Assembly (NCBI RefSeq): GCF_016428645.1
Contig: NZ_JAELXW010000003.1
Span: 62,001-126,000 of the forward strand
Reading direction: 5' to 3'
DNA: 64,000 nt
Source of the DNA: Glycomyces salinus
GTDB lineage: Bacteria > Actinomycetota > Actinomycetes > Mycobacteriales > Micromonosporaceae
This document shows positions 39,569-64,000 of the stretch, in pieces (position 1 is the first letter of the stretch; every line of letters starts with the position of its first letter). The notes under the pieces are model-generated. The model saw nothing but the letters and a program-made list of their open reading frames with translations. It did no database searches and had not been told where the DNA came from. Position numbers and translations under genes: made by a program.

Positions 39569-39577
39569 GTTCCCTGC

Positions 39578-43977: not shown

Positions 43978-44516
43978 GGCGACTCCCAGTCGATCGCCGA
44001 GACCAACCAGTCCTTACTCGTCCATCCGTTGGCGCTCTCAGACATGGACAGGATCAGGGTGCCGGTGTCCGTAGGGATGGAGACCCGGTTGCCTTCGGCG
44101 GTAGCTTCGCCTTCGATGCTTTGGGCGGGAACCGATGTCGGGTCGACCTGCTCCATCGCCGCGGCCCGGTCCTCGGTGAGGTAAGGGGCGATCGACTCGT
44201 ACCAGGCCGCTTGGTCGAGTCCGTCGGGGTTGAGCCAGGCCTCGGCGAAGGCGAGCGCGCGGTCGACTGCCTCTTCAGGTAGTTCCTCGGCCGCGTAGCA
44301 GTCCTCGCCTTCGCAGTCGAACGTGGCGATGCCGTCGTCGGCCGTCATCTGATCCGGGATCTCGGACTCGTCCGATGATTCGCCGTTCCCCGAGGTGCTG
44401 CCGCTGAGCGGGGTGTCGTCGCGGGTCTGGGCGAGGGCGAGCGCGATGATGACCACGACGAGGATGATCGCCACGATGCCATAGCGGGAGAAGACGATCC
44501 GGAACAATCGTCGCAA
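43974..44516 (-). CDS. VirB8/TcpC-like membrane protein
   Basis: A 180-residue bitopic protein: short basic tail, membrane helix (about residues 12-30, YGIVAIILVVVIIALALAQ), a Ser/Glu linker, and an NTF2-like domain (EAVDRALAFAEAWLNPDG, NRVSIPTDTGTLILSMS). This is the VirB8/TcpC layout of Gram-positive type IV systems. Overlaps the next start by 4 nt. The pair of NTF2-like proteins at 36700 is a different gene with two such domains. Confidence 0.65.
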   Translation of the reverse strand: MRRLFRIVFSRYGIVAIILVVVIIALALAQTRDDTPLSGSTSGNGESSDESEIPDQMTADDGIATFDCEGEDCYAAEELPEEAVDRALAFAEAWLNPDGLDQAAWYESIAPYLTEDRAAAMEQVDPTSVPAQSIEGEATAEGNRVSIPTDTGTLILSMSESANGWTSKDWLVSAIDWESP

Positions 44517-44518
44517 TG

Positions 44519-49476: not shown

Positions 49477-49862
49477 AGGCGCTCCTCTTGTCGGGCGGTC
49501 TCCACGAGTGTGGGACGGAGCCGGATCGATCGGGTCGAGAACGCCGGGATTCGCTTCTCGGCGCCTGCCTCTCGGGTGTGCTTCCAGTCGGTCAGGAGGG
49601 TGCGGAGCACGGTCGTCGCCGGGCGGTCGGCGTCGACGTAGCGGAAGATCAGGGAGGTCGCGACCAGGGCCAGGGAGATCTCGATCGAGGGGAAGAGATT
49701 GACGTCGCCGGTGAAGAGCCAGTAGACGAACATGAACAGGGCAAGCAGCGCGGCGAAGACCCCGTACTGGGCGTAGGGCAGGTGGATCGGGAGGGTGTAC
49801 CCGGGCGGGCCTAGGTAGAGCAGCCGGGCGCGGTAGATGTCGTCGTCAGTGCGCAGGCGCAT
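49473..49862 (-). CDS. PrgI/VirB3-like T4SS membrane protein
   Basis: A 129-residue protein with two closely spaced membrane helices (about residues 30-48 and 58-74, VFAALLALFMFVYWLF and SIEISLALVATSLIF) near the N-terminus and a basic C-terminal tail. This is the PrgI/VirB3-like layout always found just before a VirB4-type ATPase, as here (ATG of the ATPase overlaps its stop by 4 nt). Confidence 0.75.
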   Translation of the reverse strand: MRLRTDDDIYRARLLYLGPPGYTLPIHLPYAQYGVFAALLALFMFVYWLFTGDVNLFPSIEISLALVATSLIFRYVDADRPATTVLRTLLTDWKHTREAGAEKRIPAFSTRSIRLRPTLVETARQEERL

Positions 49863-49907
49863 GGGCGTCCTCCATCCAGGCTGGCTCGGTGGCGGGGCGG
49901 GCGGGAG

Positions 49908-50201
49908 CTACTCGTTCTCGCTGAAGAGGACGTCGACGAGTCCGCCGCCCACGGCCACCAGTACGACCGCGCCGGCGATGAAGGCGATGCCGAGGATCGC
50001 GATGGTCGAGGACGTCAGCACCCGGCTGACCTCTCCCTTGTTGGCTCTTGCGATGAAGATGAGTCCGAGGATCGCGAGCAGGATCGGGGCGATGCGGCTC
50101 AGGAAGAAGCTGATGATCCCCTGGGTGTTGATCTCGGCATCCTGTGCCTGCACGTGGGCGGCCACCGTCCAGAGCGTGTCTTTAATCATCGTCAGTCCCA
50201 T
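49908..50201 (-). CDS. TrbC/VirB2-like pilin subunit, first gene of T4SS operon
   Basis: A 97-residue protein with two hydrophobic helices (about 32-50, FLSRIAPILLAILGLIFIA, and 62-85, STIAILGIAFIAGAVVLVAV) joined by a basic loop, the layout of TrbC/VirB2-type pilin precursors. GTG/ATG choices at residues 1 and 5 are equivalent (MGLTMIKD). First gene of the operon running to 42805; the palindrome at 50410-50427 lies 209 nt upstream and could control it. Confidence 0.7.
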   Translation of the reverse strand: MGLTMIKDTLWTVAAHVQAQDAEINTQGIISFFLSRIAPILLAILGLIFIARANKGEVSRVLTSSTIAILGIAFIAGAVVLVAVGGGLVDVLFSENE

Positions 50202-50460: not shown

Positions 50461-51648
50461 TCATTGGCCCCAGTAGTCGCCGAACTCCCGGTCGACCCGG
50501 TCTGCGTCGATGCCGTATCGGGACAATCGGTACTGATGGCCTCGCTTCGAGTCGGGGCGCTCCAGCACCGACCGCAGGGTGTCCTCCTCGGCGCCGGTCC
50601 AGCCCATCTCCAACTCCCCGAACAGGATCGGCAACTCTCCGTGCGGGTTGTCGGTGAGCCGATCGTACGAGACATCGATGAACCGCCCGGGCGCGGCGCC
50701 GGCGCGGACGCGGCGGGCCGCCTCGATTCCCTGCGGGAAGATCCCCAGCCACTCCGGGCCTATCGGTGCCGGGTCCACAGTGCGGTAGGTCAGTGCGCGG
50801 GCGGTCTCGACCAGGGAGCACCAAGAGCCCATCACCGTCGACGGCGCCCGGTGCGTCCATACGATCGTCGCGCCGTCGAACACCTTCAGCAGCACGTCGA
50901 GGTTGAACAGGTGGAACGGGGCTTTGAGCATCCAGCGCCGCCGCGGGAGGCCGAACTGGAGGACCTGGAGCACGCGCCGGTAGTGCTCGTAGTCCGGGGT
51001 GAAGTCGTGGGCGTCGAGCCAGGCGAGGTAGGCCGGCATCGAAGCGCGGGTGGTGAAGTTGTGCCCGTGGGGCAGCGCGAACACGCATTCCTCGGGCTGC
51101 AACGCCTCCAGGGGGTGGATCCGGTTCCATCCGGGAGCCGCCATGCCCCCGAGCCTGCCCATGGCGCGCGCCTGCCTGATCCGGCGCCGCTTGAGCTTCT
51201 CGTCGGCCCCGCTCAAGTCGGTGTTCACCAGCTCCCACAGCAGCGGCGCCCGGTTGCCGTGGTGCGCGGACAGCATCCGGTGCGTCAGGGTGGTGCCGGT
51301 GCGGGGCAGACCCGTCACGACCACCGGGCGCTCGATCGGCTCGCGCGCTATCTCGGAGCGCTCGGCCACCAGGCGCTCGACGCGCAGGTAACTGGCCATG
51401 CGGCGGGTCAGGTCGTCGACGAAGCCCTCCCAGCCGAACAGCGAGATCCCCTCGGTCTCGGCGGCGCAGTCGAGCAGGAACCGGTAGGACTCCACGAACT
51501 CCGGAGCTAGGGCCGCATCCGCCTCTGCCAGGCGTTCGGCCTTGGAGAGCATGCGGTCGAAGACCCGGCCCGGGTGGGCGCGGGCGCCCCGGACTCTGGC
51601 CGCACCGAGAGTATTGACGAGACTTACCCAAGGTGCGGTGCGTCGCAT
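50461..51648 (-). CDS. PAPS-dependent sulfotransferase
   Basis: A 395-residue Sulfotransfer_3-type enzyme. The 5'-phosphosulfate loop is VVTGLPRTGTTLTHRMLS (about residues 109-126) and the 3'-phosphate region includes WTHRAPSTVMGSWCSL; RFIDVSYDRLTDNP is the usual late block. It transfers sulfate from PAPS to an unknown acceptor, typically a lipid or glycan. ATG 51648; divergent from the membrane gene at 51856 with an operator between. Confidence 0.85.
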   Translation of the reverse strand: MRRTAPWVSLVNTLGAARVRGARAHPGRVFDRMLSKAERLAEADAALAPEFVESYRFLLDCAAETEGISLFGWEGFVDDLTRRMASYLRVERLVAERSEIAREPIERPVVVTGLPRTGTTLTHRMLSAHHGNRAPLLWELVNTDLSGADEKLKRRRIRQARAMGRLGGMAAPGWNRIHPLEALQPEECVFALPHGHNFTTRASMPAYLAWLDAHDFTPDYEHYRRVLQVLQFGLPRRRWMLKAPFHLFNLDVLLKVFDGATIVWTHRAPSTVMGSWCSLVETARALTYRTVDPAPIGPEWLGIFPQGIEAARRVRAGAAPGRFIDVSYDRLTDNPHGELPILFGELEMGWTGAEEDTLRSVLERPDSKRGHQYRLSRYGIDADRVDREFGDYWGQ

Positions 51649-51855: not shown

Positions 51856-52653
51856 ATGGACGCCATCGATGACATCGCCGGACGGCTCACCGTCGCGGCG
51901 ATCGCATTCGCCGTCGCCGGCCTCGTCCTGGCCTCGCTCGCGGCGATAGCGCTCGGCGGCGTGCGCGCCGCCGAGAAGTGGCCCAGCGCGCCCCGCCCCC
52001 GAGTCGGACGGCCGGTCGCCCTGGCCGGGGCCATGTTCGGCCTCATCGTCCTCGCCCTGGCGGCCGGCCTGCTCTCCCTGGCGCGCATCGGCACCGGGCT
52101 CGACCCCAACCTGCGGGTCCTGCTCGCGGTCGGCATCGACCTGGCCGTGCTCGCCGTCGGCGTGCTCGCCGTGAACTACGTGGCCGGGCGCGTCGAAGTG
52201 CGCGCCCTGATCACCGAGGCCGAGCGCCCGCCCCAGCCGCCCCCGATCCCCGTCTCCGGCGACCCCACCCGCTACCAGGTCCCCGACCGCACCGAGGTCC
52301 CGGTCGACCACAACGGCACCATGCACGCCCCCGGCCCCCGGCGGCCCGCCGGGCCGATGGCCCCCGACACGGCCGCGACCGGGAACCTCAGGCAGGTCTC
52401 CGGCGGCGTCCCGACCATCCCGACCGACACCCGGCCCGGATGGGTGTTCCAGGACAAGGGCACCGGAGCCTTCTACGCGGCCGTCGCACAGAGCAGGGGC
52501 GGCATCAGCCTGCTGGCGCTCGACGACTTCACCGTCGCCCGCACCGCCTCGCTGGTCGGCCCCCTCGAACTGGTCGGCTCGGTCGAGGCCACCGTGTGGC
52601 CCCTGGAGAACGGCCAGAACCACGACGAGCAGGCCGCCTCCACCACCGAATAA
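51856..52653 (+). CDS. Hypothetical membrane protein
   Basis: A 265-residue protein with three to four N-terminal hydrophobic helices (about 10-36, 53-78, 87-108), then a Pro-rich linker and a soluble C-terminal part including TRPGWVFQDKGTGAFYAAVA. No family recognised. The 3' end (last about 180 bp) is overlapped on the other strand by the long PEGA-like frame at 52473. An operator lies upstream at 51749. Confidence 0.65.
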   Translation: MDAIDDIAGRLTVAAIAFAVAGLVLASLAAIALGGVRAAEKWPSAPRPRVGRPVALAGAMFGLIVLALAAGLLSLARIGTGLDPNLRVLLAVGIDLAVLAVGVLAVNYVAGRVEVRALITEAERPPQPPPIPVSGDPTRYQVPDRTEVPVDHNGTMHAPGPRRPAGPMAPDTAATGNLRQVSGGVPTIPTDTRPGWVFQDKGTGAFYAAVAQSRGGISLLALDDFTVARTASLVGPLELVGSVEATVWPLENGQNHDEQAASTTE

Positions 52654-54359
52654 CGCACCTGCTCGGGAGCCTTCGGGACGGCGCGACTGGAACCCCGGAC
52701 CGACCGCGGTTCCGGTAGTATTTCCGTATGCTCAGCCGCTTCGGGATCGAACCACCCGAGACCCCCTTGATCCGGCCATCCGAGCAAGACGCGGCCGCCG
52801 CCGCCGAACTCGGTTCGGTCCTCGACATGATGCGCCGGAGCCCCGCCCCCGAACCCGAGCCCGGGCAGGTGCTCCGGACGACCGCCGTGGCCTGGCTGCG
52901 CCTGGCCGCCGAATGCCGCGACGCCGCCGCCGTCATGGGCTTCGGCGAAGTCGGCGAACGACTCTACGAACTGGGGAAGGCGTCCGCCGCGATCGGCCTC
53001 CAACTGGTCGCGCTCTCGATCCGCCTGGAATCCGCCTGCCACCGCGGCATCCGCCTCGGCCCCGAACTGCCCCGCAGCAGCGGGCGCCGCTACACCGGCC
53101 GGCGCGTCGAAGCGAACCGCCGATAACGAGGTGGCCGTCAGCGTCGCCGAGTAGCGCCGCAGCTCCCAGCCCTCGAAACCGGGAGTCATCTCGACGCGCG
53201 CCAACGCCTCGACCGCACCCGACGCGCCGACCTCCGTGTCCAGGACCGAATCGGGGCCGAGTTCGACCTCGGTGCCCGCTCCCACCAGCACCTCCGGGGG
53301 CGGCGGGACCTCCACGGTCACGCGATGCGTCCCCGGCGCGAGCCGGTACTCGTTGACACCCCAGATCGAGGGGACGGGCTCGCCGTCGATCACGACCCGG
53401 GGCGCGGACATCCACGGGCGCACCTCGGGCGGATAGTCCTCCCCGAACTGGCGCGCTCGCTTGGCGGCCCTGGCCACCTCCTGCTCGTCCACGATCGTTC
53501 CGAGCGGCGCTTCGGGCCGATGCGGGGCCTGGACGTAGGCGAGGTTCACCCGGAGCCCGGCGGCGGGCGAGACGTCCCGAGGATCGACCGGCCGCCACGT
53601 CCCGACCGGGCACGGTGTCTCCCGGTACTCCGCGACCGGCAGGCCGAATCTCAGGCGGGCCTCGGCGATCCGGTTCCACACCCGCTCGATCAGCAGGCCG
53701 ATCCGATAGAACAGGATGCCGCCCAAGATCGAGGCGAGGACGTACCCCACGAGGGCCAGATAAATGATCAGGCGCGATTGGGATTCGCCGGAATCGAATT
53801 GAAGCAGTGTCAAGCCGACGGCGGCGAATCCGGCCAGGCTCCCGAGGACTGCGAGCACCGCGGTCACCGCGCGCCCCATGCGCGGCGGGACCGACCGGGT
53901 CGGCAGCAGGAACCACTGGCGTACGAGCTCCGGAACGGGGCCCTCGTCGAGGCGCTGGGGCACGAACGAGGTCACGCGGGTGAACAGTCCCCGTTTGACC
54001 TCAATCGGCCAGTAGGCGCCGGAAGCGCCGCTCTGGATCTGAAGCAGGTAGCGGCCCGGCTCCAGATCGATGTCGACCCTTCCGAATCCGGTGGCCACCG
54101 GCTCACCGTCGATGAGCGCCACCGGAGTGAAAGGCCGCGGCTCGTCGAGCTCCTCGATGCCGCCGAGCAGGTCCGACTCCAGAATCAGGATGCCCTTCTC
54201 GGGCGAGGGAAGGCCCCTGGATCCGACCCCGCTCCTGACCCAGATCGAATACATCGCGTGCGAGAACACGGTCCGGCTCCCGAGCGGATGCTTCGCGAGC
54301 TCGTATGGAGCGGCGGCATCCTGCCCGAGAGCCTGCAGCCAGCGGAAGTTCAGACCCAT
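52473..54359 (-). CDS. PEGA-like two-domain membrane protein (copy a)
   Basis: A 628-codon frame; about 420 residues resemble its paralogues. Domain 1 (about residues 85-125): IDGEPVATGFGRVDIDLEPG, LLQIQSGASGAYWPIEV. Two membrane helices (about 165-220). Domain 2 (about 305-340): RVVIDGEPVPSIWGVNEYRL, APGTHRVTVEVPPP. Short PEGA-like beta domains usually present or anchor surface proteins. Past the RRYSATLTATS strand, where the paralogue at 55863 ends in TLTRYSGRIW, the frame continues about 200 codons antisense through the gene at 52728; this is probably accidental. The start overlaps the previous gene. Confidence 0.6.
   Translation of the reverse strand: MGLNFRWLQALGQDAAAPYELAKHPLGSRTVFSHAMYSIWVRSGVGSRGLPSPEKGILILESDLLGGIEELDEPRPFTPVALIDGEPVATGFGRVDIDLEPGRYLLQIQSGASGAYWPIEVKRGLFTRVTSFVPQRLDEGPVPELVRQWFLLPTRSVPPRMGRAVTAVLAVLGSLAGFAAVGLTLLQFDSGESQSRLIIYLALVGYVLASILGGILFYRIGLLIERVWNRIAEARLRFGLPVAEYRETPCPVGTWRPVDPRDVSPAAGLRVNLAYVQAPHRPEAPLGTIVDEQEVARAAKRARQFGEDYPPEVRPWMSAPRVVIDGEPVPSIWGVNEYRLAPGTHRVTVEVPPPPEVLVGAGTEVELGPDSVLDTEVGASGAVEALARVEMTPGFEGWELRRYSATLTATSLSAVRFDAPAGVAAPAAAGQFGAEADAAVAGGFQADRERDQLEADRGGRLPQFVESFADFAEAHDGGGVAAFGGQAQPGHGGRPEHLPGLGFGGGAPAHHVEDRTEFGGGGRVLLGWPDQGGLGWFDPEAAEHTEILPEPRSVRGSSRAVPKAPEQVRYSVVEAACSSWFWPFSRGHTVASTEPTSSRGPTSEAVRATVKSSSASRLMPPLLCATAA
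52728..53126 (+). CDS. Hypothetical protein, leaderless start
   Basis: A 132-residue, mostly helical protein (LRTTAVAWLRLAAECRDAAAV, GERLYELGKASAAIGLQLVAL) with a basic Arg-rich end. TAGTAT (52716-52721) precedes the ATG by 6 nt, a good -10 for a leaderless message. It lies entirely antisense to the 3' part of the frame 52473-54359; at most one of the two is likely translated over this stretch. Confidence 0.5.
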   Translation: MLSRFGIEPPETPLIRPSEQDAAAAAELGSVLDMMRRSPAPEPEPGQVLRTTAVAWLRLAAECRDAAAVMGFGEVGERLYELGKASAAIGLQLVALSIRLESACHRGIRLGPELPRSSGRRYTGRRVEANRR

Positions 54360-55537
54360 AATCGCGCGGCCTGTTGGGCCAGGTTGCCGAGAAGATTCAG
54401 GACCGGCTTGAGTTTGTCGATCACTTCGAGCACGAACCTGATGATCTTCGCGGCCCGCTCGGAGATGCGCAGCACCTGCTTGATCGAGTTGAGGGCCCTC
54501 ATGATCAGCGAAGCGATCTTGGCGACGCCCTGCGCGACCATGCCCGCCGTCCAGGCGCCGAACGTCGCCACCGCGGCCGCGGCCTGCGGCAGCAGCCGCG
54601 TCAGCGCCCAAGAGACACCCTTGGCGATCAGATCGACGATGTCCTGCCGCAGCATCTTCGCCAAGTTCGCCATCTCGGTGAGCAGCGCCTGCAGCGCCAC
54701 CGCCAGGTAGCCCAGGACATTGGTGGACTCGCCGAGGTCCTCGACGCGAACGCGCGCCGTGTCGCCGTCTTGGCCGACCCAGTCCGAGAGGGCGTCTACT
54801 CCCACCTCTTTGACGTGGTCGCCGACCTGTGCGGCGCCTTCGGCCACGGTGCCCCACATCTCGGCCGACTTCTTCATGCGGCTCTCGTTCCCCGACACCA
54901 GGCCCACCAGGTCCTCCAGCGGCTGGAAGGCCTGGATGAGGAAGTCGATCAGGGTTCCGGCGAGCCACTGGACCGGGTCGAACTTCGGGTCGCCGATGTG
55001 CTCGACGAACGCCGTGTACTGCTTCATCGCGTCGCCGACGGCGAGGAGGTCGCCCGCCAGGCTCGTGGTGAGATTGGTGATCGCACCGAAGTCGGTCAAG
55101 CTGTCGATCTTCTGAGCGTTCTGGAACGTGTTGATCCCCAGAGTGAGCGGCGAAGCGGCGCTCTGCAGCATGTTGTTTCCGGAGACGTTGCTGTGGGATC
55201 GGCCGTCGTAGGCGATGCTGCCGTCGTCGTTGCGACCGCTGACCCGCACATCGGATCCGACCGTGTCGCCGTCGTAGCGGAGGTGGGCCGGCATGTTGCC
55301 GTACATGCCGAAGCCCTGATGGGTGTTGGTGTACGACTCGTTCCCGTCATCGGGGACGTACTGCGAGGCCCACTGGTGGAGTCCGCTCGTCTGCCCGTCG
55401 AAGTCGGCCTTGCGGGAGCCTTCGCCGGTGGTCGCGTCGTAGTAGTCCTTCCACTGGCCGCCCCAGGCGCCGTCCTCGGCGACCGTGGGAGATTGGCTGG
55501 GGGCGTTGTCCTGCCAGTTCAGTTCGTCGTCGGACAT
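54350..55537 (-). CDS. Long helical type VII-like protein
   Basis: A 395-residue protein. An acidic N-terminus (DDELNWQDNAPSQSPTVAED) is followed by long helices. The mid/C-terminal conserved blocks QPLEDLVGLVSGNESRMKKS and LSDWVGQDGDTARVRVEDL are shared with the fused protein at 60368. The final part is hydrophobic and Ala-rich. No signal peptide. ATG 55537 overlaps the upstream gene's stop (TGATG). It belongs to the minus-strand operon 57068 to 52473. Confidence 0.7.
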   Translation of the reverse strand: MSDDELNWQDNAPSQSPTVAEDGAWGGQWKDYYDATTGEGSRKADFDGQTSGLHQWASQYVPDDGNESYTNTHQGFGMYGNMPAHLRYDGDTVGSDVRVSGRNDDGSIAYDGRSHSNVSGNNMLQSAASPLTLGINTFQNAQKIDSLTDFGAITNLTTSLAGDLLAVGDAMKQYTAFVEHIGDPKFDPVQWLAGTLIDFLIQAFQPLEDLVGLVSGNESRMKKSAEMWGTVAEGAAQVGDHVKEVGVDALSDWVGQDGDTARVRVEDLGESTNVLGYLAVALQALLTEMANLAKMLRQDIVDLIAKGVSWALTRLLPQAAAAVATFGAWTAGMVAQGVAKIASLIMRALNSIKQVLRISERAAKIIRFVLEVIDKLKPVLNLLGNLAQQAARLWV

Positions 55538-55866
55538 CACAGATCACCCGAATCGATCCGGTCGGCGATCCTGGAGAGCTCAGCGGCGATCTCGTCGTCG
55601 TTGCCCTCGTGGTCCTCCGCGCACTTGTCGAGCGCGGAGGCCAGACCGTCTATGGCGGTCCGGGTCTCCTCGAACGTCGGGTGCACGAAGCCGTTCATGC
55701 CGGCGAAGTAGACGGCCGCGAACGGAAGTCCGCCGAGCCCCCACATCCACAGGTCCGGGTCCGCCTCCTTGGCGTAGTCGGCCAGGGAACCGGCCTCGTC
55801 CGCCACTCCTCGGAGGATCTCGGCGGCCGATCTGAGCTGTTCGGCATCGATGTCGATAGAGGTCAT
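55537..55866 (-). CDS. EspC-like small secreted protein
   Basis: A 109-residue protein: helix-turn-helix with WMWGLGGLPF (a variant WxG turn) and a C-terminal helix (DHEGNDDEIAAELSRIADRI). Typical of ESX-associated EspC/WXG100-like proteins. The same region forms the N-terminus of the fused gene at 60368. Overlaps both neighbours by 4 nt. Confidence 0.7.
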   Translation of the reverse strand: MTSIDIDAEQLRSAAEILRGVADEAGSLADYAKEADPDLWMWGLGGLPFAAVYFAGMNGFVHPTFEETRTAIDGLASALDKCAEDHEGNDDEIAAELSRIADRIDSGDL

Positions 55867-57068
55867 GGGGAGTTCCTCGGGGGCTCAGCGGTCCAGATCC
55901 GACCCGAATATCGAGTCAGAGTCAGACCGTCGGCGTTCATTGTCGATTTGATCTGCGCGTAGCCTTCGATCTCGGTGACCGACCCTTCACGCAGATCCAG
56001 GTCGAACAGAAGTCTAGAAGATCCCAACAAATCCACCTCGGTGCCCTTGTCCAGCAACGGTGCCGGGCGCGGGATCGCGACCTCCAGAAGGTCGTGCGAA
56101 CCGGGGGGCAGGCGGTACTCGTTCAGACCCCAGATCGCCGGCAGCTCGCGGTCGTCGAGGGTGATTCGGGGCGGCTCCACCCAGGGCAGGCCGCGCCTGC
56201 GCACCGTTGCCGCCTTGCGTTCCCCGGCGGCGTGGTCCCACCGCATGTCGCGCACCAGCGCCCGCCGCTCTCGCTTCCACCAGCGACCCATGCCCTCCAG
56301 CTCCTCGCCTATGACCTCGACGAACGGCGCGTCCGGATCCTGTCGGCGGCCCGGGATAGGCTGGGCCGCCACGGGTGCCTCCGGTAGCGGCGTACGACGG
56401 ACTTCGAGCGGCTGGATCGAGTGGAAGCTGTCGTACAGGAAGACGACGTGGATGCGCAGGATCGCGCCCGAACCGGGATCGGGCTCGCTCAGGTCGTCGG
56501 GGTCGACCGGACGCCAGGTGATGTCCTCGCCCACCGGCTCGAACCGGGCGACCGACCGGCCGAGACGCCTGGGGCCCAGCCGGAAGCACCGGTAGAACCG
56601 CCGCATGCGCTCTGACAGGACGCCGCTGTAGAACGGTTCGGCGACGACCGAGGACAATCGCACCTCGCCGCCCTCGGGAACCTCCACGGGCCAGTGGCGG
56701 CCCGACGCCCCGGCCTGGACTTGGACCAGGTGCCTTCCCGCCGGAACCGCGATCCGGCCCCTCCCGCGGCCCGTGGCCGCGGGGGCGCCGTCGATCAGGA
56801 TCACCGGGAAATGCCCCGGCCAACGCAGCAGTTGGTACTCGTTGCCCTTGGGCGGCAGCGGTTCACCCGGCTCCGGCCGTCGAACCCGAGGTTGGCGGGC
56901 CCGCGTGATCATCCTGGAGGAAATGCGGATCGTCCCGCACCCTTCGGGCACCCCGCCGACCCTCCCGGTCGCGACCGGGAACGGTGAACGCGCGTGCGGC
57001 CTGAAGCGGTGCGCGCCGGACAGCCTGCCGAACAGCAGGACGAGGTAGCGGACGAGTCGTTGCAGCAT
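55863..57068 (-). CDS. PEGA-like two-domain protein (copy b)
   Basis: A 401-residue paralogue of 52473-54359: domain 1 GAPAATGRGRGRIAVPAGRH then LVQVQAGASGRHWPVEV; domain 2 ELPAIWGLNEYRLPPG and LLEVAIPRP. It lacks the two clear membrane helices of copy a; a hydrophobic N-terminus (LVRYLVLLFGRL) may anchor it. First gene of the minus-strand operon; GGGAGG precedes ATG 57068. Confidence 0.7.
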   Translation of the reverse strand: MLQRLVRYLVLLFGRLSGAHRFRPHARSPFPVATGRVGGVPEGCGTIRISSRMITRARQPRVRRPEPGEPLPPKGNEYQLLRWPGHFPVILIDGAPAATGRGRGRIAVPAGRHLVQVQAGASGRHWPVEVPEGGEVRLSSVVAEPFYSGVLSERMRRFYRCFRLGPRRLGRSVARFEPVGEDITWRPVDPDDLSEPDPGSGAILRIHVVFLYDSFHSIQPLEVRRTPLPEAPVAAQPIPGRRQDPDAPFVEVIGEELEGMGRWWKRERRALVRDMRWDHAAGERKAATVRRRGLPWVEPPRITLDDRELPAIWGLNEYRLPPGSHDLLEVAIPRPAPLLDKGTEVDLLGSSRLLFDLDLREGSVTEIEGYAQIKSTMNADGLTLTRYSGRIWTAEPPRNSP

Positions 57069-57127
57069 CGGGTCCTCCCGGACGGGCGCTCGACCTGGTC
57101 GCGTGCGCGACCCGGCTGGCGTCCGGT

Positions 57128-57139
57128 TGCTACGGTTGA
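57128..57139 (+). promoter_or_regulatory. Extended -10 element before the EspB-like gene
   Basis: TGCTACGGTTGA: extended -10 (TGC-TACGGT). It matches the TGCTAnnnTGA pattern of the elements at 39085 and 61771. Confidence 0.3.
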
Positions 57140-57180
57140 TACCGAGACCGGCCACGACCCCAGCCGAGGTGAGCACCCTC

Positions 57181-58734
57181 ATGAGCGACAGCCAGTTCGA
57201 ACAGGAAGCATACGGAGGGCTCGAACCCGCCACGGCGTCCGCAATGTCCGCGGAACCGGCGTTCGGCGACGTCGAGGGCGAACTCGCGGCCGGCGGCAGC
57301 GGCGGCAACGATGTCGGCCTCGTCCCGCCCGGTTGGCGTCGGCCCTGCTCGACCGCCGACTGCGGCAATCCTACCGAGCACCCCGCCGAGGACCAGTGGC
57401 AGCGCCTGGTCTCGGCCGTGCCGGTCCAGGACCAGCTGTACCGTCTCAAGCCCCGAATCGACGGCATGTCCTACCCGACCGAGGAGGACTTCCGCACCGC
57501 GGTGGCGGCCGTCCGGCCCGAGCACGCCGACGAGCACTCCCTGGCCAGGCTGCGCGCCGGATGGACCGAAGAGGTCGGCGGCAAGCTCGGGGACTGGTCG
57601 GAGCGGATCCGGTCCAACCTGACCGACCTGGCCGAGGGCTGGTCGGGAACCGACTTCGACGCGTTCGTGACCATGGCCAACGGGACCAGGGAGCTGGTCG
57701 ACGGGATCCTCGAGGACGTCGACGCGACCGTCTCGCAGCTCGAGTCCACTGAAGAGAACATCTACACCCTCCAAGGCGGCGACTCCGGGGAGATCCCCTA
57801 CCCCGCGCCGCAGTTCTGGATCGAAGGCGAATGGCACAGCTGGGTCGCCATGCACATCAGGCCCGCCTGGTGGCACGGCGACTGCATCAAGTACACCTGC
57901 CAGGACGCCGAGAGCGCGGTGGAGCTGGCCGGAGTCGACCCCGACCTGGCCACCGAGATCATCGACTACATCGACGACCGCGTCGACCACTGGATCCGGC
58001 ACTACGAGAACCCGGCGAACATCGAGGCCGACGGCCTCGACCCCAAGGGCATCACGCTCGAAGAGGCCAAGGACATGGCCGTGGCCGACGCCATGGACAA
58101 CTTCGGGGGCGTGATCGACCAGAACCAGAGCGACTACGAATCGCGCCACCAGGGCATCGACGAGGAGATCGACCAGCGCAGCGCCGACAACGACGCCGAG
58201 CAGCAGGGCATGCGGACCACCGCCAGCGACAAGCCTTACCCCGACGGTGCCGACGAGTCGAAGATGGACCTCGAATCGCCGTCGATGGAGCAGCCGAGCG
58301 GGACCGCCTCGCCCGAGACCACCCAGGACCCGTCGGTGGACCCGCCCGAAGGCCGGGCACCCGACGACGATTCCGGCGGCGGTGGCGCGGACCCCGAAGA
58401 CGAGGGCCCCGGCGGCCTCGCCAGCGGCGGGCCCGGCGGAGGCGGCGGCGGAATCGGCGGCGCGGCCCCCGGCGGCAGCCTCGGATCGCCCGGCGGCGGG
58501 TCTCCCTCGCCGGGAGGGGCCGGAACCGGAGCGGCCGTGGGCGCCGGAGCGGCGGCGGGAGGAGCGGCCGCCGCGGGTGCGGGCAGAGGCGCCACCACCG
58601 GCATGATGGGCGGCGCGGGCGGCGCCGGACGCCCGATGGGCGGCGAGAACACCGAACGCGATCCCGACGTCGATCTGAACGAAGACCGGAACATGTGGGG
58701 CTTCGTCAGCGAAGACGACGACCCCTACGCCTAA
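57181..58734 (+). CDS. EspB/PPE-like C-x4-C and WxG substrate protein
   Basis: A 517-residue protein. Conserved order: CSTADC (C-x4-C, about residues 58-63), a helical pair joined by WSGTDFDAF (WxG turn), IYTLQGGDSGEIPYPAP, then IRPAWWHGDC. The C-terminal third is a disordered Gly/Pro tail, as in EspB/EspK-type substrates. A homologue at 62988 shares every block. GAGGTGAG precedes ATG 57181. Diverges from the PEGA-like (b) gene. Confidence 0.7.
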   Translation: MSDSQFEQEAYGGLEPATASAMSAEPAFGDVEGELAAGGSGGNDVGLVPPGWRRPCSTADCGNPTEHPAEDQWQRLVSAVPVQDQLYRLKPRIDGMSYPTEEDFRTAVAAVRPEHADEHSLARLRAGWTEEVGGKLGDWSERIRSNLTDLAEGWSGTDFDAFVTMANGTRELVDGILEDVDATVSQLESTEENIYTLQGGDSGEIPYPAPQFWIEGEWHSWVAMHIRPAWWHGDCIKYTCQDAESAVELAGVDPDLATEIIDYIDDRVDHWIRHYENPANIEADGLDPKGITLEEAKDMAVADAMDNFGGVIDQNQSDYESRHQGIDEEIDQRSADNDAEQQGMRTTASDKPYPDGADESKMDLESPSMEQPSGTASPETTQDPSVDPPEGRAPDDDSGGGGADPEDEGPGGLASGGPGGGGGGIGGAAPGGSLGSPGGGSPSPGGAGTGAAVGAGAAAGGAAAAGAGRGATTGMMGGAGGAGRPMGGENTERDPDVDLNEDRNMWGFVSEDDDPYA

Positions 58735-58749
58735 AGGGAAGTGACGCAG

Positions 58750-59100
58750 ATGGCGATCCAGCGGACGCGCACCTTCGACCCGGCCGCTCTCGAGCGCTAC
58801 CGGGTCTTCCTCGAAGACCTGCTCGACGAGCTCGAGAACGAGATCGTCCCGGTCCTGCGCGACGGGACGCTGAAGAAGGCCCCGGCCTTCGGCTCGACCC
58901 CCGGCGCGTACCAGAACGCCGGCGAACAGTACGCCGAGTTCCACGCCACCACCTGGCGCAACCTCCAGTACCTGCGGGGCACTCTCCACGGCATGATCAA
59001 CGGGCTCCAGCACGCCATCGACACCGGCGGCGAGACGGACGACTGGATAATCCAGCAGCTCCCGAAGGTGATGCCCGGGAGCGACGACATCTACACGTGA
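58750..59100 (+). CDS. WXG100-like partner protein (copy 1)
   Basis: A 116-residue helical protein (from ATG 58750), with FHATTWRNLQYLRGTLHGM and a Trp-Ile-Ile tail. Homologue at 61830-62159 (FHSTTWQSLEGIRSSLYGL). Follows the EspB-like gene by 15 nt; likely the small binding partner of it. Confidence 0.65.
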   Translation: MAIQRTRTFDPAALERYRVFLEDLLDELENEIVPVLRDGTLKKAPAFGSTPGAYQNAGEQYAEFHATTWRNLQYLRGTLHGMINGLQHAIDTGGETDDWIIQQLPKVMPGSDDIYT

Positions 59101-60368
59101 GACTCGCCCTTCCGGGGCCAACTGCGCGGCGGGTGCCAGAAGTCGCCAGGGTTACGGCCGTCGCTGCGAGCGGCGAGATTGCGGGCCCGCTTCGAGACCC
59201 GATGCGCGATCTGCGGTGCGGGGCCGGTCAAGCGCTGCTCTGTGTCGTCCCAGATTCGGAACACCCGGACCGGGACTTGGAGCACCGCGATGTCATCCGT
59301 GTTCTTCACCTCGAAGGCGAACTCGTGGCGGACGGTGGAGCCGTCGAGCGGATCGGGACCGTACTCGGCTCGGAAACGGTGCTCGCCCGCCGCGAGCGAG
59401 TAGTACCAGGTCGACCAGTCGCTCGGGACCTCGACGCCGTCGATCCACAGTCGCGGCCGCCCCGCGTGGGCCAGCGCCAACTCCCGGTTCGAGCCCGCAT
59501 AGGCCGCGACGCCGTCTGATCCCCGTGAGAGGCGGTAGAAGAACAGGTCGAACACCACCGCGACACCGAGCGCGGTGCCGGTCTGGCGCCAGGTTCGCAG
59601 GTCCTCGGGGGAGGGGAACGCGAACGCACCGTTGCCGACCGAACGGTGCACCGGCTCGAGTCGCGCCGACTTCGCCCGCCTGTGGAAGCGGCGGGTCGAG
59701 ACGATGCCGATCGTGACTCCGGCGATCAGCGCCAGCGCGCCGGCGGCCGCGACGACGGCGGCCACTTCCGCCACCACTCCTTCGGGCAAGACCGCTGCGA
59801 GTGTCGCAGATAGCGCGAGGACCACCGTGCCGGCCACGGCCATGAGGCAGCCGACACCCGAACGGTTGGATTCCGAGGCGCTCAGGACCGGCATGTAGTC
59901 GGAGCCGTCCCGCACCCGGTACAGCCGGGTGCGGTACTCGCTCTGGTGCCGCACCGCCACCGAATGCCCGGCGGTGAAGCAGACGCGCTCCCCCGGCGCC
60001 AAGTCGAACTCGGAGCTGGCCGCGTCGGCGCCCTGCACCTCGACCCGATGCCCACCCGGCGGCAACTCGATCTGATACCTTCCGTCCCCGGCCGCGACCG
60101 GCCGACCGTCCAAGACCAGCACACCAGTGGCGTCGGCGGTCTCGGAGGTGCACACGAAGACGTCCAACACCCCGAGAGCCTCACCTGCGTACACAGGCGC
60201 TGACCGCCCCGCCCGATACTCCTCGACCGAACTGAAGCCGACCACCAATTCGCCGTCGGCACGATAGGTCAACCCGGACGCGTCCCGGTAGGCCAGCAAT
60301 GGAGCATCATCGACATCACCGGGCCCACGAAACCCATGCCGCGCCTCCGGCGACTTCGAACCCACCAC
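59091..60368 (-). CDS. PEGA-like two-domain membrane protein (copy c)
   Basis: A 425-residue paralogue of copies a and b: GRPVAAGDGRYQIELPPGGH, two membrane helices (about 160-215), and LWIDGVEVPSDWSTWYYSLA. GTG 60368 overlaps the upstream TAG (TAGTG). Its 3' end overlaps the convergent gene at 58750 by 10 nt. Confidence 0.7.
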   Translation of the reverse strand: MVGSKSPEARHGFRGPGDVDDAPLLAYRDASGLTYRADGELVVGFSSVEEYRAGRSAPVYAGEALGVLDVFVCTSETADATGVLVLDGRPVAAGDGRYQIELPPGGHRVEVQGADAASSEFDLAPGERVCFTAGHSVAVRHQSEYRTRLYRVRDGSDYMPVLSASESNRSGVGCLMAVAGTVVLALSATLAAVLPEGVVAEVAAVVAAAGALALIAGVTIGIVSTRRFHRRAKSARLEPVHRSVGNGAFAFPSPEDLRTWRQTGTALGVAVVFDLFFYRLSRGSDGVAAYAGSNRELALAHAGRPRLWIDGVEVPSDWSTWYYSLAAGEHRFRAEYGPDPLDGSTVRHEFAFEVKNTDDIAVLQVPVRVFRIWDDTEQRLTGPAPQIAHRVSKRARNLAARSDGRNPGDFWHPPRSWPRKGESHV

Positions 60369-61615
60369 TACCCGTCGAACCCGTCGGCGATGTCGCCAGC
60401 CGAAGGGCTGCCGCTGCCCGCGAGCGTGCCGACCATGCCGACCGACTTGAACCCGGCCTCTGCGAGCGGCTTCGCCGCCGTCTCGAAAACCGTCGCGACC
60501 CGCGACAAGATGCGGTTCGCCTGCACGAACGTGTCGGCGACCCTGCCGTACCGGTTCAAGCACGTGATGGTGGTCGCGATGCCAGAGCGGATTGAGTTCG
60601 CCATCGCGGCCGCGGTCGAGGCGCCGAACGTCGGGGCTGCCGCGGCGAACGCGGCCGCCCAGCTGATCGCCCAGTTCGTGATCAGCTGCGAGATCTGGCT
60701 CAGGATCGTCTTGCGGATCAGGGTCGCGATCATCTCGCACAACTGCATGAGGCCCTGAAGCACTTGGATCTGATCCCCAAGCTTGAACACCGACTCGGCG
60801 AAGTCCTTGATCTTCTCCCGCGCAAGGTCCCCGTCCTGGCCAGACCACTCGCTGAGTCCGCCTTCGGGGAGCTTCGCTATCTCCTCACCGATGGGCGGCA
60901 GGGCGCCCTTGAGGCCGTCCCAGCGCTGGATCTCGGCGGCCATGCGCTCGCCGTTGCCGGTGACCATGCCGAGTAGGTCGTCAAGGGGCTGGATGAGAGA
61001 GATGAGGAAGTCCAGGCCCGCCGAGATCAAGAACGACAGCGGGTTGACGGCGGCATCGATCACGTCCCAGCCCCAGCCCGCGGCACTGGCGGCCAGGTCC
61101 ATCACCGAATTGACTGCCTCGCCGGCGTCGTCAGCGCGACCGACGGCCAAGATCTTTTGGAAGACCTCGTAGCCGCCGGTGACCGCCTTCGTAGGGGCCT
61201 GTTTCCAAGCTCCGGAGTCGACCAACCCCACCGGCCCCGGACCGTGGTAGCTGTCGCCGCCGTCGGTGAAGGTCGATCCGCCCCAGTCGATACTGCCGCC
61301 GAGACCCTCGGGGTCGAACTTCGAGAACTCCCGGGCCATGTCCATGTCCGTGGTCTCCCACGCCTCGCGGCAGTCTTTGAGCCGGTCGGCATGACCCTCG
61401 ATCCCCACGTTCATCATGCGGAACAGCTCGCGGAGGTCTGCGACCAGGGAGTAATAGCCCGGCGAGAGGAACAGACCCGGGACGCCCCAGGCCATCATGT
61501 CCAGCCCGTCGTCATTGGCCTTCCCCTCGAGTTCCTGAGCAGCCGGCATCTGCGCTCGGAGGACTTGCTCAGCGTCGGAGAGCTGCTGGGGAGTGACACC
61601 TACTGGCTCGCTCAT
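60368..61615 (-). CDS. Fused EspC-like + long helical type VII-like protein
   Basis: A 415-residue protein equal to a fusion of the 55537 small protein (residues 1-105, MAWGVPGLFL turn) and the 54350 protein (LSEWSGQDGDLAREKIKDF, QPLDDLLGMVTGNGERMAA). In the other module these are separate overlapping genes. Long Ala-rich helices fill the C-terminus. Confidence 0.75.
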   Translation of the reverse strand: MSEPVGVTPQQLSDAEQVLRAQMPAAQELEGKANDDGLDMMAWGVPGLFLSPGYYSLVADLRELFRMMNVGIEGHADRLKDCREAWETTDMDMAREFSKFDPEGLGGSIDWGGSTFTDGGDSYHGPGPVGLVDSGAWKQAPTKAVTGGYEVFQKILAVGRADDAGEAVNSVMDLAASAAGWGWDVIDAAVNPLSFLISAGLDFLISLIQPLDDLLGMVTGNGERMAAEIQRWDGLKGALPPIGEEIAKLPEGGLSEWSGQDGDLAREKIKDFAESVFKLGDQIQVLQGLMQLCEMIATLIRKTILSQISQLITNWAISWAAAFAAAAPTFGASTAAAMANSIRSGIATTITCLNRYGRVADTFVQANRILSRVATVFETAAKPLAEAGFKSVGMVGTLAGSGSPSAGDIADGFDG

Positions 61616-61770
61616 GTCCGGTCACCTCAATGGGATTCAGAGAATATGGAACCTGTCTCTCTGAATATATCCAAGTGTTCCGAACGACCCAAGCATGCGC
61701 TGACCAGGGACAGCACTGCGACTCAGCGGTTCCTCGCACCCGCGGCCTCGAGGCCCACGGGGTGTGGTAC

Positions 61771-61784
61771 TGCCCTGCTAACCT
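61771..61784 (+). promoter_or_regulatory. Extended -10 element, shared with 39085
   Basis: TGCCCTGCTA-ACCT: extended -10 (TGC-TAACCT). Transcript would start near 61791, 38 nt before the ATG at 61830; GGAGG (61821-61825) follows. Confidence 0.4.
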
Positions 61785-61829
61785 GAATTCGTCACGAGAC
61801 CTGAACGCATCCTCATCCCCGGAGGCCCC

Positions 61830-62159
61830 ATGCCAGAGCGCAAGCTAGATCCAGAAGCCATGCGTGAGTTCCAGCGCACAGTCCGAGAGAAGTTGCTGGA
61901 CAAGCTCGAGGACGACCTGATGCCGATGTTCAAAGGCGATCGGGTGCTCAGTCGCGAACCACGCTGGGGCGACCTCCCATCGAACAGCAATGCCAAGACC
62001 GAATACTCGACATTCCATTCGACGACCTGGCAGAGCCTTGAGGGTATCCGCAGTTCGCTATACGGCTTGCTCGAGCGGCTAGACGAGTCGATCGAAGCGC
62101 ACGAAAGTTCCGAGACCACGAACGCTTCGGGCCTCGATGGATATGGTGACCAGCTCTGA
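61830..62159 (+). CDS. WXG100-like partner protein (copy 2)
   Basis: A 109-residue helical protein, homologue of 58750-59100. Here it precedes, rather than follows, the EspB-like gene. A polar C-terminal tail ends GYGDQL. The operon continues with a lipoprotein and the second EspB-like gene. Confidence 0.65.
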   Translation: MPERKLDPEAMREFQRTVREKLLDKLEDDLMPMFKGDRVLSREPRWGDLPSNSNAKTEYSTFHSTTWQSLEGIRSSLYGLLERLDESIEAHESSETTNASGLDGYGDQL

Positions 62160-62218
62160 AGCTGAAGTTGTCGGTCACGTCTTTCAAACGACTCGAGACC
62201 CAAAGGGAGATTGAACGA

Positions 62219-62983
62219 ATGAGATCCGCGACAATTCGCCTGATCGCATCAAGCGGGATCCTGGCCGTACTGGCAGCGGGCTGCGGCGATGGCGATGGCG
62301 AAGGTGAAGATGGCGACAACGGCGAGAACGGATCGGGCGACACCTCGAACCCCGTTACCGAGGAGATGCGCTCCTGGGACGGCTGCGAGGTACTCGATGA
62401 CCTGCAGCCGATCATGGACTACATGCAGATCGAAGCCATTCAGGGCGACGAAGGCTTCAACAGTTCCCGCTATGGGGAGGGACTTGACCAACAGGCCGCT
62501 ACCTGCAGTGGCCAGGTCACGGTCTCGTCGTGGGAATACAGCGACGGCACTCCTCGAGTCAATGACGGTGAACTTTGGGTGAGCATCATTCCATGGGACA
62601 CTGAAGAGGAAGCACAAGCTAGCTACCAAGCGAGATCGGTCGATGATGTCGAAGCTCAGCTGGGACAGAGCTCGACTCTCCAGGAAACCGACCGCGTCGA
62701 ACTCGGATCTGAATGGGATGAAGGCGTGCTCTTGGTATTGGAGGACGAGCAAGCGCGCTTTCTCAACGCCTACGCCCGTGACGGCAACTGGTTGCTGACG
62801 GTGAGTATCCGCTATAACGACAATAGTGGTGACGAGTACTTCAACGAGAACCAGGAAATCCTCGATGGCACGATCGAGGATTACACCTATTCGTTCGACG
62901 ATGAAGAGCTCCAACAGTGGCTGGTGGACGAGTACGTGCCCACAGTGCATCAGGATATTACCGATATGACCGGTCAGGAGTAG
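62219..62983 (+). CDS. Acidic lipoprotein
   Basis: A 254-residue lipoprotein (lipobox LAAGC, Cys20) with a Gly/Asp/Glu-rich linker and a soluble Trp/Tyr-rich domain (VTVSSWEYSDGTPRV, WLLTVSIRYNDNSGDEY). GGGAGA (62204-62209) precedes ATG. Ends 4 nt before the next gene's start region. Possibly an immunity or anchoring lipoprotein for this module; not recognised. Confidence 0.6.
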   Translation: MRSATIRLIASSGILAVLAAGCGDGDGEGEDGDNGENGSGDTSNPVTEEMRSWDGCEVLDDLQPIMDYMQIEAIQGDEGFNSSRYGEGLDQQAATCSGQVTVSSWEYSDGTPRVNDGELWVSIIPWDTEEEAQASYQARSVDDVEAQLGQSSTLQETDRVELGSEWDEGVLLVLEDEQARFLNAYARDGNWLLTVSIRYNDNSGDEYFNENQEILDGTIEDYTYSFDDEELQQWLVDEYVPTVHQDITDMTGQE

Positions 62984-62987
62984 TGCG

Positions 62988-64000
62988 ATGAGCGACGGCG
63001 TCGACTACGGCGAATACGAGGAAGACGAATACGCTGAGATGGAGCAGGGCGGCGACTCCGACGAGTCCAGCCGCTTCGAGCGGAACTTCGTGAACGCCCG
63101 CGGCTGCACCAATGGAAGCTGCGAGAATCAGAACAACCCTGGAGAAGAGCCGTGGCTGCAGTTGATGTCGTGCATCCCCGTCACTGGCCAGATCGGGAAA
63201 ATCAAACCTATTCCTTCAGGTATGGCCACGCCCAATGACATGGAAGTCAGCGAGATCGTAGAGCAGCTCCGTGGTTCGGACGGGGACGATTACGCGATCC
63301 AAGCCATCAAAGAAGGATGGCAGGACTTCATGGATGTCTTTCAGCCACTCGAAGGTCATCTGCAAACTGCACTAGAGGCGCTGAGCCAGGAGTGGACCGG
63401 CGACGACTATGACGCTTTCGAGGAACAGGTCGAAATCGTCAAGGGGAATCTCGCTAAGGTCAAGGAGGATATCGGCTCGGCCGATGGGCAAGGCGGTGGA
63501 AACGGGATTCTCGCCATGCTAGAGCAGAAACAGTTGTCGATCTATGCTCTCCAAGGCGGTGACGCCGGCGAGGTTCTGTTCCCGGCTCCACTGGTATGGG
63601 TTGACGGCCGCGGTTTCTGGAAGTCCGCGCAGTTTCACGTGAGGCCGGCGTTCTGGGCCGGAGAGTGCGAGATCATCGATGATGCTTGCGCGAATGATAG
63701 CGGAAACGATATCCTGGAGTTGGCTGGCTATCCCGACAACGACGATTATCGGAACGAAGTCACTCAATTCGAGACCGATCGCGCCGCATATTACGAGTCG
63801 AATGGGTACAGTCCGAGCGAAGCCCAGAGCATGGCCGAAGAAGACGCGAACGCTCAAGTGACGCAGGACGTCGACGACCTGGACGAGGATTACCAGCAGC
63901 GACTGGACAACATCACCACCGACATCACAACCCGTCGAGATATGGCAGACGATGAAGTCGGAGGCTTCAGTCCCACAGTGAGCAACTCCGATGCCACCAG
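62988..64000 (+). CDS. EspB-like C-x4-C substrate protein, copy 2 (3' end outside window)
   Basis: The first 337 residues of a protein homologous to 57181-58734: CTNGSC (C-x4-C), WTGDDYDAF (WxG turn), IYALQGGDAGEVLFPAP and HVRPAFWAGEC. It continues past the right edge, so its tail is unseen. CAGGAG (62975-62980) precedes ATG 62988. Codon use is more A/T at wobble positions than in copy 1, so the two are not a recent duplication. Confidence 0.7.
   Translation, partial: MSDGVDYGEYEEDEYAEMEQGGDSDESSRFERNFVNARGCTNGSCENQNNPGEEPWLQLMSCIPVTGQIGKIKPIPSGMATPNDMEVSEIVEQLRGSDGDDYAIQAIKEGWQDFMDVFQPLEGHLQTALEALSQEWTGDDYDAFEEQVEIVKGNLAKVKEDIGSADGQGGGNGILAMLEQKQLSIYALQGGDAGEVLFPAPLVWVDGRGFWKSAQFHVRPAFWAGECEIIDDACANDSGNDILELAGYPDNDDYRNEVTQFETDRAAYYESNGYSPSEAQSMAEEDANAQVTQDVDDLDEDYQQRLDNITTDITTRRDMADDEVGGFSPTVSNSDAT

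What the first reader, a model, noticed from the sequence alone, without database searches (positions are those of the whole stretch)
52473..64000. Tandem divergent modules of type VII-like proteins without a secretion core
Two adjacent modules each have a minus-strand arm (EspC-like plus long helical protein plus PEGA-like membrane proteins) and a plus-strand arm (EspB-like C-x4-C/WxG protein plus small helical partner). Each minus arm is tightly overlapped (4-nt or TGATG/TAGTG). No EccB-E or MycP exists here, so it may be a secreted adaptor or surface-display system that uses a remote ESX core. I cannot match the combination to a described system.
Basis: partly seen in the sequence, partly recalled or inferred. 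Interest (0 to 1): 0.75.

Follow-up and report, generated by a model that had tools for sequence, protein, structure and literature searches.

The report
Remote type VII substrate cassette island
An actinomycete carries a fixed genomic site where gene cassettes for probable type VII secretion cargo, including a protein family seen almost only in its genus, sit far from the genome's single secretion machine.

Summary
The genes are real and the observation mostly holds. Two kinds of cassette alternate on opposite strands. Minus strand: an EspC-like protein (C), a WXG100_2-type helical protein (H), and beta-sandwich proteins, most with a membrane hairpin (P); C and H are one fused gene in module 2. 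Plus strand: a large WXG protein with a paired-cysteine head and Gly-rich arm (D), a small helical partner (E) and, in module 2, a lipoprotein (F). The island runs 5-6 kb past the window with a third C-H-P set. In 15 species-level loci its left border is the same; the content is shuffled. D occurs in 22 of 22 Glycomyces genomes and, full length, in no other genus of a 200-genome sample of the order. All 22 have exactly one EccB; in the 4 genomes where D and EccB share a contig they are at least 232 kb apart. D's C-terminal tail recurs in ESX-locus proteins of other genera. Best reading: accessory substrates of one distant ESX machine, analogous to espACD. The two arms are separate cassettes. 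Export is inferred; surface display is not supported. D and E are new families of a known kind.

The parts
52473..54359 (-). P1a: beta-sandwich / membrane hairpin / beta-sandwich protein; homologous part about 53136-54359, the last ~220 codons are probably a chimeric read-through
   Evidence: aligns to residues 1-448 of the 450-aa ortholog L078:14934-16286 over P1a residues 3-408
54350..55537 (-). H1: long helical WXG100_2-type protein, start GTG 55540 or ATG 55537
   Evidence: PF25547 E 1.4e-5, 25.5 bits, cut-off 27
55537..55866 (-). C1: EspC-like small helical protein with C-terminal H-EGN-D signal
   Evidence: PF10824 E 1.2e-4, 22.9 bits, cut-off 23.5; invariant Asp in 23 of 23 aligned rows
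55863..57068 (-). P1b: P-family member without a detected membrane stretch; start uncertain
   Evidence: ATGA overlap with C1
57169..58734 (+). D1: large WXG protein with C-x4-C, Gly-rich arm and end NMWGFVSEDDDPYA; start GTG 57169 or ATG 57181
   Evidence: alignment A5; WXG100 E 0.002, 18.8 bits, cut-off 27.3; model
58750..59100 (+). E1: small helical partner gene of D1
   Evidence: alignment A6; gene order
59091..60371 (-). P2: beta-sandwich / membrane hairpin / beta-sandwich protein, start GTG 60371
   Evidence: model pTM 0.81; TAGTG overlap
60368..61615 (-). CH2: EspC-like part fused to the N-terminus of an H domain
   Evidence: PF25547 E 2.5e-4, 21.5 bits, cut-off 27; aligns with both a C gene and an H gene of the genome
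61830..62159 (+). E2: small helical partner gene
   Evidence: alignment A6
62219..62983 (+). F2: lipoprotein with lipobox AAGC, start ATG 62219
   Evidence: alignment A7; lipobox pattern in 36 of 41 F genes
62988..64000 (+). D2: second large WXG protein, cut by the window end; complete as L009:2989-4674, 561 aa
51856..52653 (+). mem265: conserved left border gene of the island
   Evidence: same place in 15 loci
52728..52973 (+). remnant of the ~245-aa gene that follows mem265 in relatives
   Evidence: tblastn E 5.8e-9, 39% identity to L076:8164-8862

Best explanation
This is an accessory type VII substrate island at a fixed genomic site in Glycomyces, holding interchangeable cassettes of two kinds. 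In C-H(-P) cassettes, C and H pair; C carries the C-terminal signal that the EccC motor reads, and the pair is exported by the single distant ESX machine. P is a cognate, mostly membrane-anchored protein with cytoplasmic beta domains that most likely docks or holds the pair at the membrane. In E-(F)-D cassettes, E is the dedicated helical partner of the WXG domain of D; D is exported with its paired-cysteine head and Gly-rich arm, and F is a lipoprotein outside the membrane, a candidate receptor or anchor for exported D. Shown: gene families, gene pairing, C-H fusions in both orders, the signal motif, the tail motif shared with ESX-locus proteins of other genera, one EccB per genome, the fixed site with variable content. 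Inferred: export of C/H and D/E, binding of E to D, inward-facing P, contact of F with D.
For: C matches T7SS_ESX_EspC in 20 of 23 rows. The pattern hydrophobic-xxx-D-xx-h-xxx-H fits 19 of 23 rows against 12 of 4600 shuffles; PMC3935865 proposes it as an extended T7SS signal (passages). H matches WXG100_2 in 20 of 26 rows. C and H are fused with C first (window 60368-61615) and with C last (L081:19458-20747, PF10824 27.5 bits over cut-off 23.5 at residues 326-420). Of 112 D rows, 90 have E beside them on the same strand; of the other 22, 16 are shorter tail-sharing paralogs and 6 lie at contig ends (one gene is counted twice, as window and L009 overlap). D-tail model: 134 distinct proteins hit among 2291 (142 rows); besides D and its paralogs these include L073:8983-10302 (E 1.1e-5; beside EccC-, EccD-, EsxA/B- and MycP-like genes, assigned by eye) and L075:9426-10604 (E 0.0056; just after an EccB-like gene, by eye). 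Own genome: one EccB, in a locus with EccE-, MycP-, EsxA/B-, EccC- and EccD-like genes, by eye. One EccB in 22 of 22; D in 22 of 22. F lipobox in 36 of 41.
Against: No export data. The window's own C and H score just under the Pfam cut-offs (22.9 of 23.5; 25.5 and 21.5 of 27). E has no convincing match, so its partnership with D rests on gene order, counted on loci fetched because they hold D. The 412-aa ESX-locus protein of the own genome, whose end ETWLREDDVNWG looks alike by eye, is not supported by the tail model (E 3.3), and a third tail protein outside the genus, L074:9370-10758, scores only E 0.11 with no core gene seen in the stretch read. Both L074 and L075 were fetched because their tails matched. 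H domains elsewhere belong to toxin-type proteins. P1b has no membrane stretch.
Confidence: 0.68

Rival explanations
1. The island is a polymorphic-toxin type locus: C-H is the delivery module, and P and D are themselves effectors used against competing bacteria.
For: A C-H pair in G. tenuis is followed by a deaminase-type gene (L058:13145-13855, PF14440 E 7.2e-9), others by various genes. H matches lie in open frames of up to 3033 residues in other genera. Cassette content varies between species.
Against: The D and P rows match no toxin family in Pfam, and D has a conserved, not variable, C-terminus. The constant neighbours of D are E and often F. Immunity genes were not searched for.
Confidence: 0.15
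2. The genes serve the neighbouring type IV-like cluster (VirB4-like ATPase, PrgI-like protein) as part of a conjugation or envelope machine.
For: VirB4-like, PrgI-like and p97 genes flank mem265 in 15 of 15 loci that carry mem265.
Against: 69 of 84 loci with D show none of these three genes in the stretch read, and the tail and signal motifs point to ESX.
Confidence: 0.07
3. The proteins form a membrane-bound cytoplasmic complex that is not exported; the WXG and EspC-like folds were reused for protein binding.
For: P looks inward-facing (inference); no export has been measured.
Against: C keeps the export-type signal; F, with a lipobox in 36 of 41, is encoded between E and D in 39 of 90 cases.
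Confidence: 0.08

Closest known systems
espACD operon of mycobacterial ESX-1
   Same: Small EspC-like protein and larger helical WXG-type partner; PMC2891827 (passages) reports EspA and EspC in culture filtrate, lost in the deletion strain, and that optimal EsxA/EsxB secretion needs the operon. That espACD lies away from the ESX-1 locus is recalled.
   Different: H is closer to WXG100_2 than to EspA (EspA_EspE matches 3 of 26 H rows, best E 0.0032), and the third gene is a beta-sandwich, mostly membrane protein; likeness to EspD was not tested.
EspC / WXG100_2 delivery pairs of actinobacterial polymorphic toxins
   Same: C-H pair, YbaB genes nearby, C-H followed by a variable gene.
   Different: The slot after H holds P here, not a recognised toxin.
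EspB
   Same: WXG motif, Gly-rich arm; tail-region sequence match E 6.2e-5.
   Different: No match of D to the EspB PPE model (two H rows match it weakly, best E 0.0048) and no PDB fold match at E<=0.001.
Tail-bearing WXG proteins inside ESX loci of other genera
   Same: Same type of C-terminal tail and Gly-rich arm (L073:8983-10302, L075:9426-10604).
   Different: They sit beside core genes; by eye their heads lack the D-type cysteines and no E gene was labelled near them.

Membership tests
EspC family (PF10824) | Match to the EspC model | tested here: inconclusive
   20 of 23 rows at E<=0.1, best 3.6e-12; the window member scores 22.9 against cut-off 23.5
EspC family (PF10824) | C-terminal YxxxD/E-type export signal | tested here: met
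   Invariant Asp 23 of 23; four residues before it Y 9, H 8, W 3, M 2, A 1; extended pattern 19 of 23 vs 12 of 4600 shuffles. The window member has H, not Y
WXG100_2 (PF25547) | Match to the model | tested here: inconclusive
   20 of 26 rows at E<=0.1, best 2e-7; both window members below the cut-off
EspA/EspE (PF18879) | Match to the model | tested here: not met
   3 of 26 H rows, best E 0.0032; not listed for the window member
EspB | PE/PPE-type helical fold | tested here: not met
   No Foldseek hit at E<=0.001; EspB_PPE not among the 4 families matched by 24 D rows; only the tail region matches
WXG100 domain in D | W-x-G between two helices | tested here: met
   W and G invariant 24 of 24; helices 143-155 and 161-201 either side in the model; WXG100 model matches 9 of 24 at E<=0.1, the window member below cut-off
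ESX / type VII core locus | EccB-EccE and MycP beside the substrates | tested here: not met
   Only EccB match of the genome is on another contig; same in 21 relatives as far as contigs show
Type VII substrate | EccC-dependent export | not testable with these tools
   needs proteomics of an eccC deletion
PEGA domain | Match to the PEGA model | tested here: not met
   Not among the 13 families matched by 24 P rows at E<=0.1; structure likeness only local
DUF3558 lipoproteins | Match to PF12079 | tested here: not met
   1 of 11 F rows at E 0.073

The most novel reading that the evidence does not exclude
D, E and F make up a genus-specific envelope system: the one ESX machine of Glycomyces exports several sequence-divergent D proteins, each with its own E chaperone, and they assemble through the paired-cysteine head into a surface or secretion-associated structure held by the F lipoprotein, while P membrane proteins choose which substrate pair is presented to EccC. 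A single core would thus be multiplexed by swapping cassettes at a fixed site.
Probability: 0.18. Interest if true: 0.65.

Novelty: new variant of a known kind. Interest (0 to 1): 0.48.

Why it matters
If right, a genus with one ESX core has multiplied its cargo instead of its machines, unlike M. tuberculosis with its five ESX clusters (PMC4791881, abstract in the listing). With 2 to 8 D match rows per genome it offers a system, in a genus not known to me as a pathogen, for asking how one EccC selects many substrates. The shared tail motif suggests a second recognition element besides YxxxD/E that simple deletions can test.

Tried and rejected
D as an EspB homologue: rejected as a membership claim. 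P as a Pfam PEGA protein: no model match; kept as a fold-level likeness. F as DUF3558: rejected. Anti-phage defence: no PADLOC match in 10 proteins. Virus origin: a viral-contig scan with A1 confirmed none of 43 pattern stretches. Plasmid origin: no match of the CH2 protein in the plasmid collection at E<=1e-3. P outside the genus: 4 genomes with weak matches covering only model positions 287-379; in the loci read around them the four genes labelled P had no H neighbour, and the one weak hit close to an H gene (G060 contig 46) was not called as a gene. NCBIfam named none of the seven island proteins tried. Own-genome ESX tail: the model gave E 3.3, so the likeness by eye is not counted as evidence. 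Literature: no paper in the searched library holds Glycomyces with 'type VII secretion' or with 'ESX'; other searches were seen as listings, and only PMC3935865 and PMC2891827 were opened, for passages.

Limits: genes were called by a home-made codon-usage score, not a standard gene finder, so starts are uncertain. D-E pairing was counted on loci fetched because they hold D. D, E, F, P, H and C labels come from my own models, built from these same genes and iterated once. Handles G070, G105, G119 and G169 are taken as G. sp. TRM65418, G. harbinensis, G. arizonensis and G. tenuis from equal contig lengths; so one row of A8 and two of A10 repeat a gene (L056 and L084).
Full report
What is there. 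The window is part of contig C135 of an unnamed 5.37 Mb genome in 211 contigs. Genomes of the same genus are named Glycomyces, so the host is taken as a Glycomyces. The genes of 52.4-64.0 kb have coding-type codon use. On the minus strand, module 1 reads P1b, C1, H1, P1a and module 2 reads CH2, P2. On the plus strand, module 1 reads D1, E1 and module 2 reads E2, F2, D2.

Beyond the window. The next 5-6 kb hold the rest of D2, a P gene on the plus strand and a third minus-strand set H, C, P, followed by two genes that match YbaB (L009). Another E-F-D run lies about 31 kb further (L010:15552-18252). C-H pairs with no D in the stretch read stand elsewhere in the genome (L011, L012, L013), and an H-P pair at L014. 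The two arms are therefore separate cassettes.

A fixed site with variable content. Of the loci scanned, 15 carry mem265 (14 other strains, one of them a MAG, plus the window), and all 15 have VirB4-like, PrgI-like and p97 genes to its left. L076 and the window have extra genes between p97 and mem265, L087 one between VirB4 and PrgI. Ten of the 16 sites listed show a YbaB pair to the right of the last D; in the other six the stretch ends first or differs. Between the borders D-E and E-F-D usually remain, while C, H and P genes change number, place and direction. Where relatives keep a ~245-aa gene, a 100-aa gene, a ~315-aa helical gene (weak PPE match in L050, below cut-off) and P, the window has the inverted P-C-H-P arm and only a fragment of the ~245-aa gene at 52728-52973 (tblastn E 5.8e-9). 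In L107 the same four-gene arm stands beside an intact block, so arrival of the arm and loss of the block could be separate events. The fragment lies under the part of P1a beyond residue 408, where homology to its ortholog ends.

The C-H pair. C matches the EspC model in 20 of 23 rows and has an invariant Asp preceded at -4 by Y (9), H (8), W (3), M (2) or A (1); the wider pattern fits 19 of 23 rows against 12 of 4600 shuffles. PMC3935865 (passages) proposes this wider pattern as an extended T7SS signal. H matches WXG100_2 in 20 of 26 rows, and also PPE in 5 and EspB_PPE in 2. The two are fused with C first (window 60368-61615) and with C last (L081:19458-20747), which argues that they bind each other. 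H is not special to the genus: 32 of 101 genomes of the order have a match at E<=1e-6, some in open frames above 1300 residues, up to 3033. In G. tenuis a C-H pair precedes a deaminase-type gene (L058).

The D-E-F unit. D has two invariant head cysteines (C-x4-C in 22 of 24), a WXG hairpin, a small beta region, a long helix, a Gly-rich arm and a conserved end (model mean pLDDT 68, structured about residues 55-370). Of 112 D rows, 90 have E on the same strand beside them (E-F-D 39, D-E 31, E-D 20); of the other 22, 16 are paralogs of 376-468 residues that share mainly the tail and 6 lie at contig ends. One gene is counted twice because window and L009 overlap. D was found in 22 of 22 Glycomyces genomes, with 2-8 match rows each, some of them fragments. 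In a 200-genome sample of the order 13 had a match: 5 of the genus with full-length matches and 8 others with partial matches to the tail or the WXG part. E was found in the same 5 and weakly in one other. In the named collection 78 loci were kept, 76 of Glycomyces and 2 of one MAG; that scan used one peptide pattern, so absence elsewhere is not proof.

The link to ESX. 22 of 22 Glycomyces genomes have one EccB match. Comparing positions, EccB and a D share a contig in 4 genomes (G070, G210, G211, G215), at 232 kb or more; in the other 18 they are on different contigs. In the own genome the EccB contig (C150) also holds genes that look like EccE, MycP, EsxA, EsxB, EccC and EccD (by eye). A model of D's last ~28 residues hit 134 proteins of 2291; outside the genus these are L073:8983-10302 (E 1.1e-5) and L075:9426-10604 (E 0.0056), both beside core-type genes, and L074:9370-10758 (E 0.11), with none seen. 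L073 had been fetched for its WXG part, L074 and L075 for their tails. The own ESX-locus protein with a similar-looking end scored E 3.3. A simple motif test on the last 60 residues hit 83 of 117 D-labelled proteins and 0 of 1539 others; shuffled tails hit 11 of 2340 and 34 of 30780.

The P proteins. Of 26 P rows, 23 have a hydrophobic stretch, often two, with Lys/Arg on both sides; P1b and two short pieces have none. The model of P2 (pTM 0.81) shows a beta sandwich on each side of a helical hairpin. The one PDB hit under E 0.001 aligns poorly (rmsd 17); local matches of 51-77 columns at E 0.003-0.3, with high probability, include a carboxypeptidase D and a glucan-binding protein, and in viral models a carboxypeptidase-regulatory-like protein. 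No signal peptide is apparent by eye, so I read both domains as cytoplasmic; this is inference.

How it likely works and what is novel. The best reading is a set of accessory substrates and helpers of one distant ESX machine, as espACD is for ESX-1 (PMC2891827, passages). Export, partner binding and topology are inferred. The D, E and P representatives tried have no NCBIfam name and no PADLOC match. So D/E is a new family pair of a known kind, and C-H-P is a known pair with an unusual third gene.

Noticed in passing
window 52728-52973 (+): Fragment of a ~245-aa gene that relatives keep after mem265; a scar of cassette replacement, under the extended end of P1a.
   Followed up: yes
window 42805-50201 (-): Type IV-like cluster: VirB4-like ATPase (AAA_10 E 4.8e-20; NCBIfam TcpF 77.5 bits, far below its cut-off), PrgI-like and small membrane proteins, and a peptidase-like protein (by eye); its end marks the left border of the island in 15 of 15 loci.
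   Followed up: partly
window 39194-41371 (+): Small gene without a Pfam match followed by a 597-aa protein with an alpha/beta hydrolase domain (PF06259 E 6e-20); by eye another type VII-type effector pair.
   Followed up: no
window 50461-51648 (-): Sulfotransferase-family gene between p97 and mem265; the other 14 loci with mem265 have none of this length there (L076 has two other genes).
   Followed up: no
L058:9261-10751; also L063 and 15 of the loci L089-L104: A ~107-aa plus ~385-aa pair, divergent from D-E, whose larger protein shares D's C-terminal tail; L058's has a WXG100 match below cut-off. A second probable substrate pair beside D-E.
   Followed up: partly
L058:11721-13855 (taken as G. 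tenuis): YbaB-like gene (by eye), EspC-like, WXG100_2-type and a deaminase-type gene in a row: a polymorphic-toxin-like cassette using the same C-H pair.
   Followed up: partly
L181 and L016 (own contig C150): The ESX core contig has several kilobases of poorly scoring, divergent genes between the EsxA/B-like pair and EccC, including a 412-aa protein ending ETWLREDDVNWG...
   Followed up: partly
L078:17984-19276 and L081:19458-20747: H domain with an EspC-like domain fused at its C-terminus (Pfam-tested in L081, by eye in L078), the reverse order of the window fusion.
   Followed up: yes
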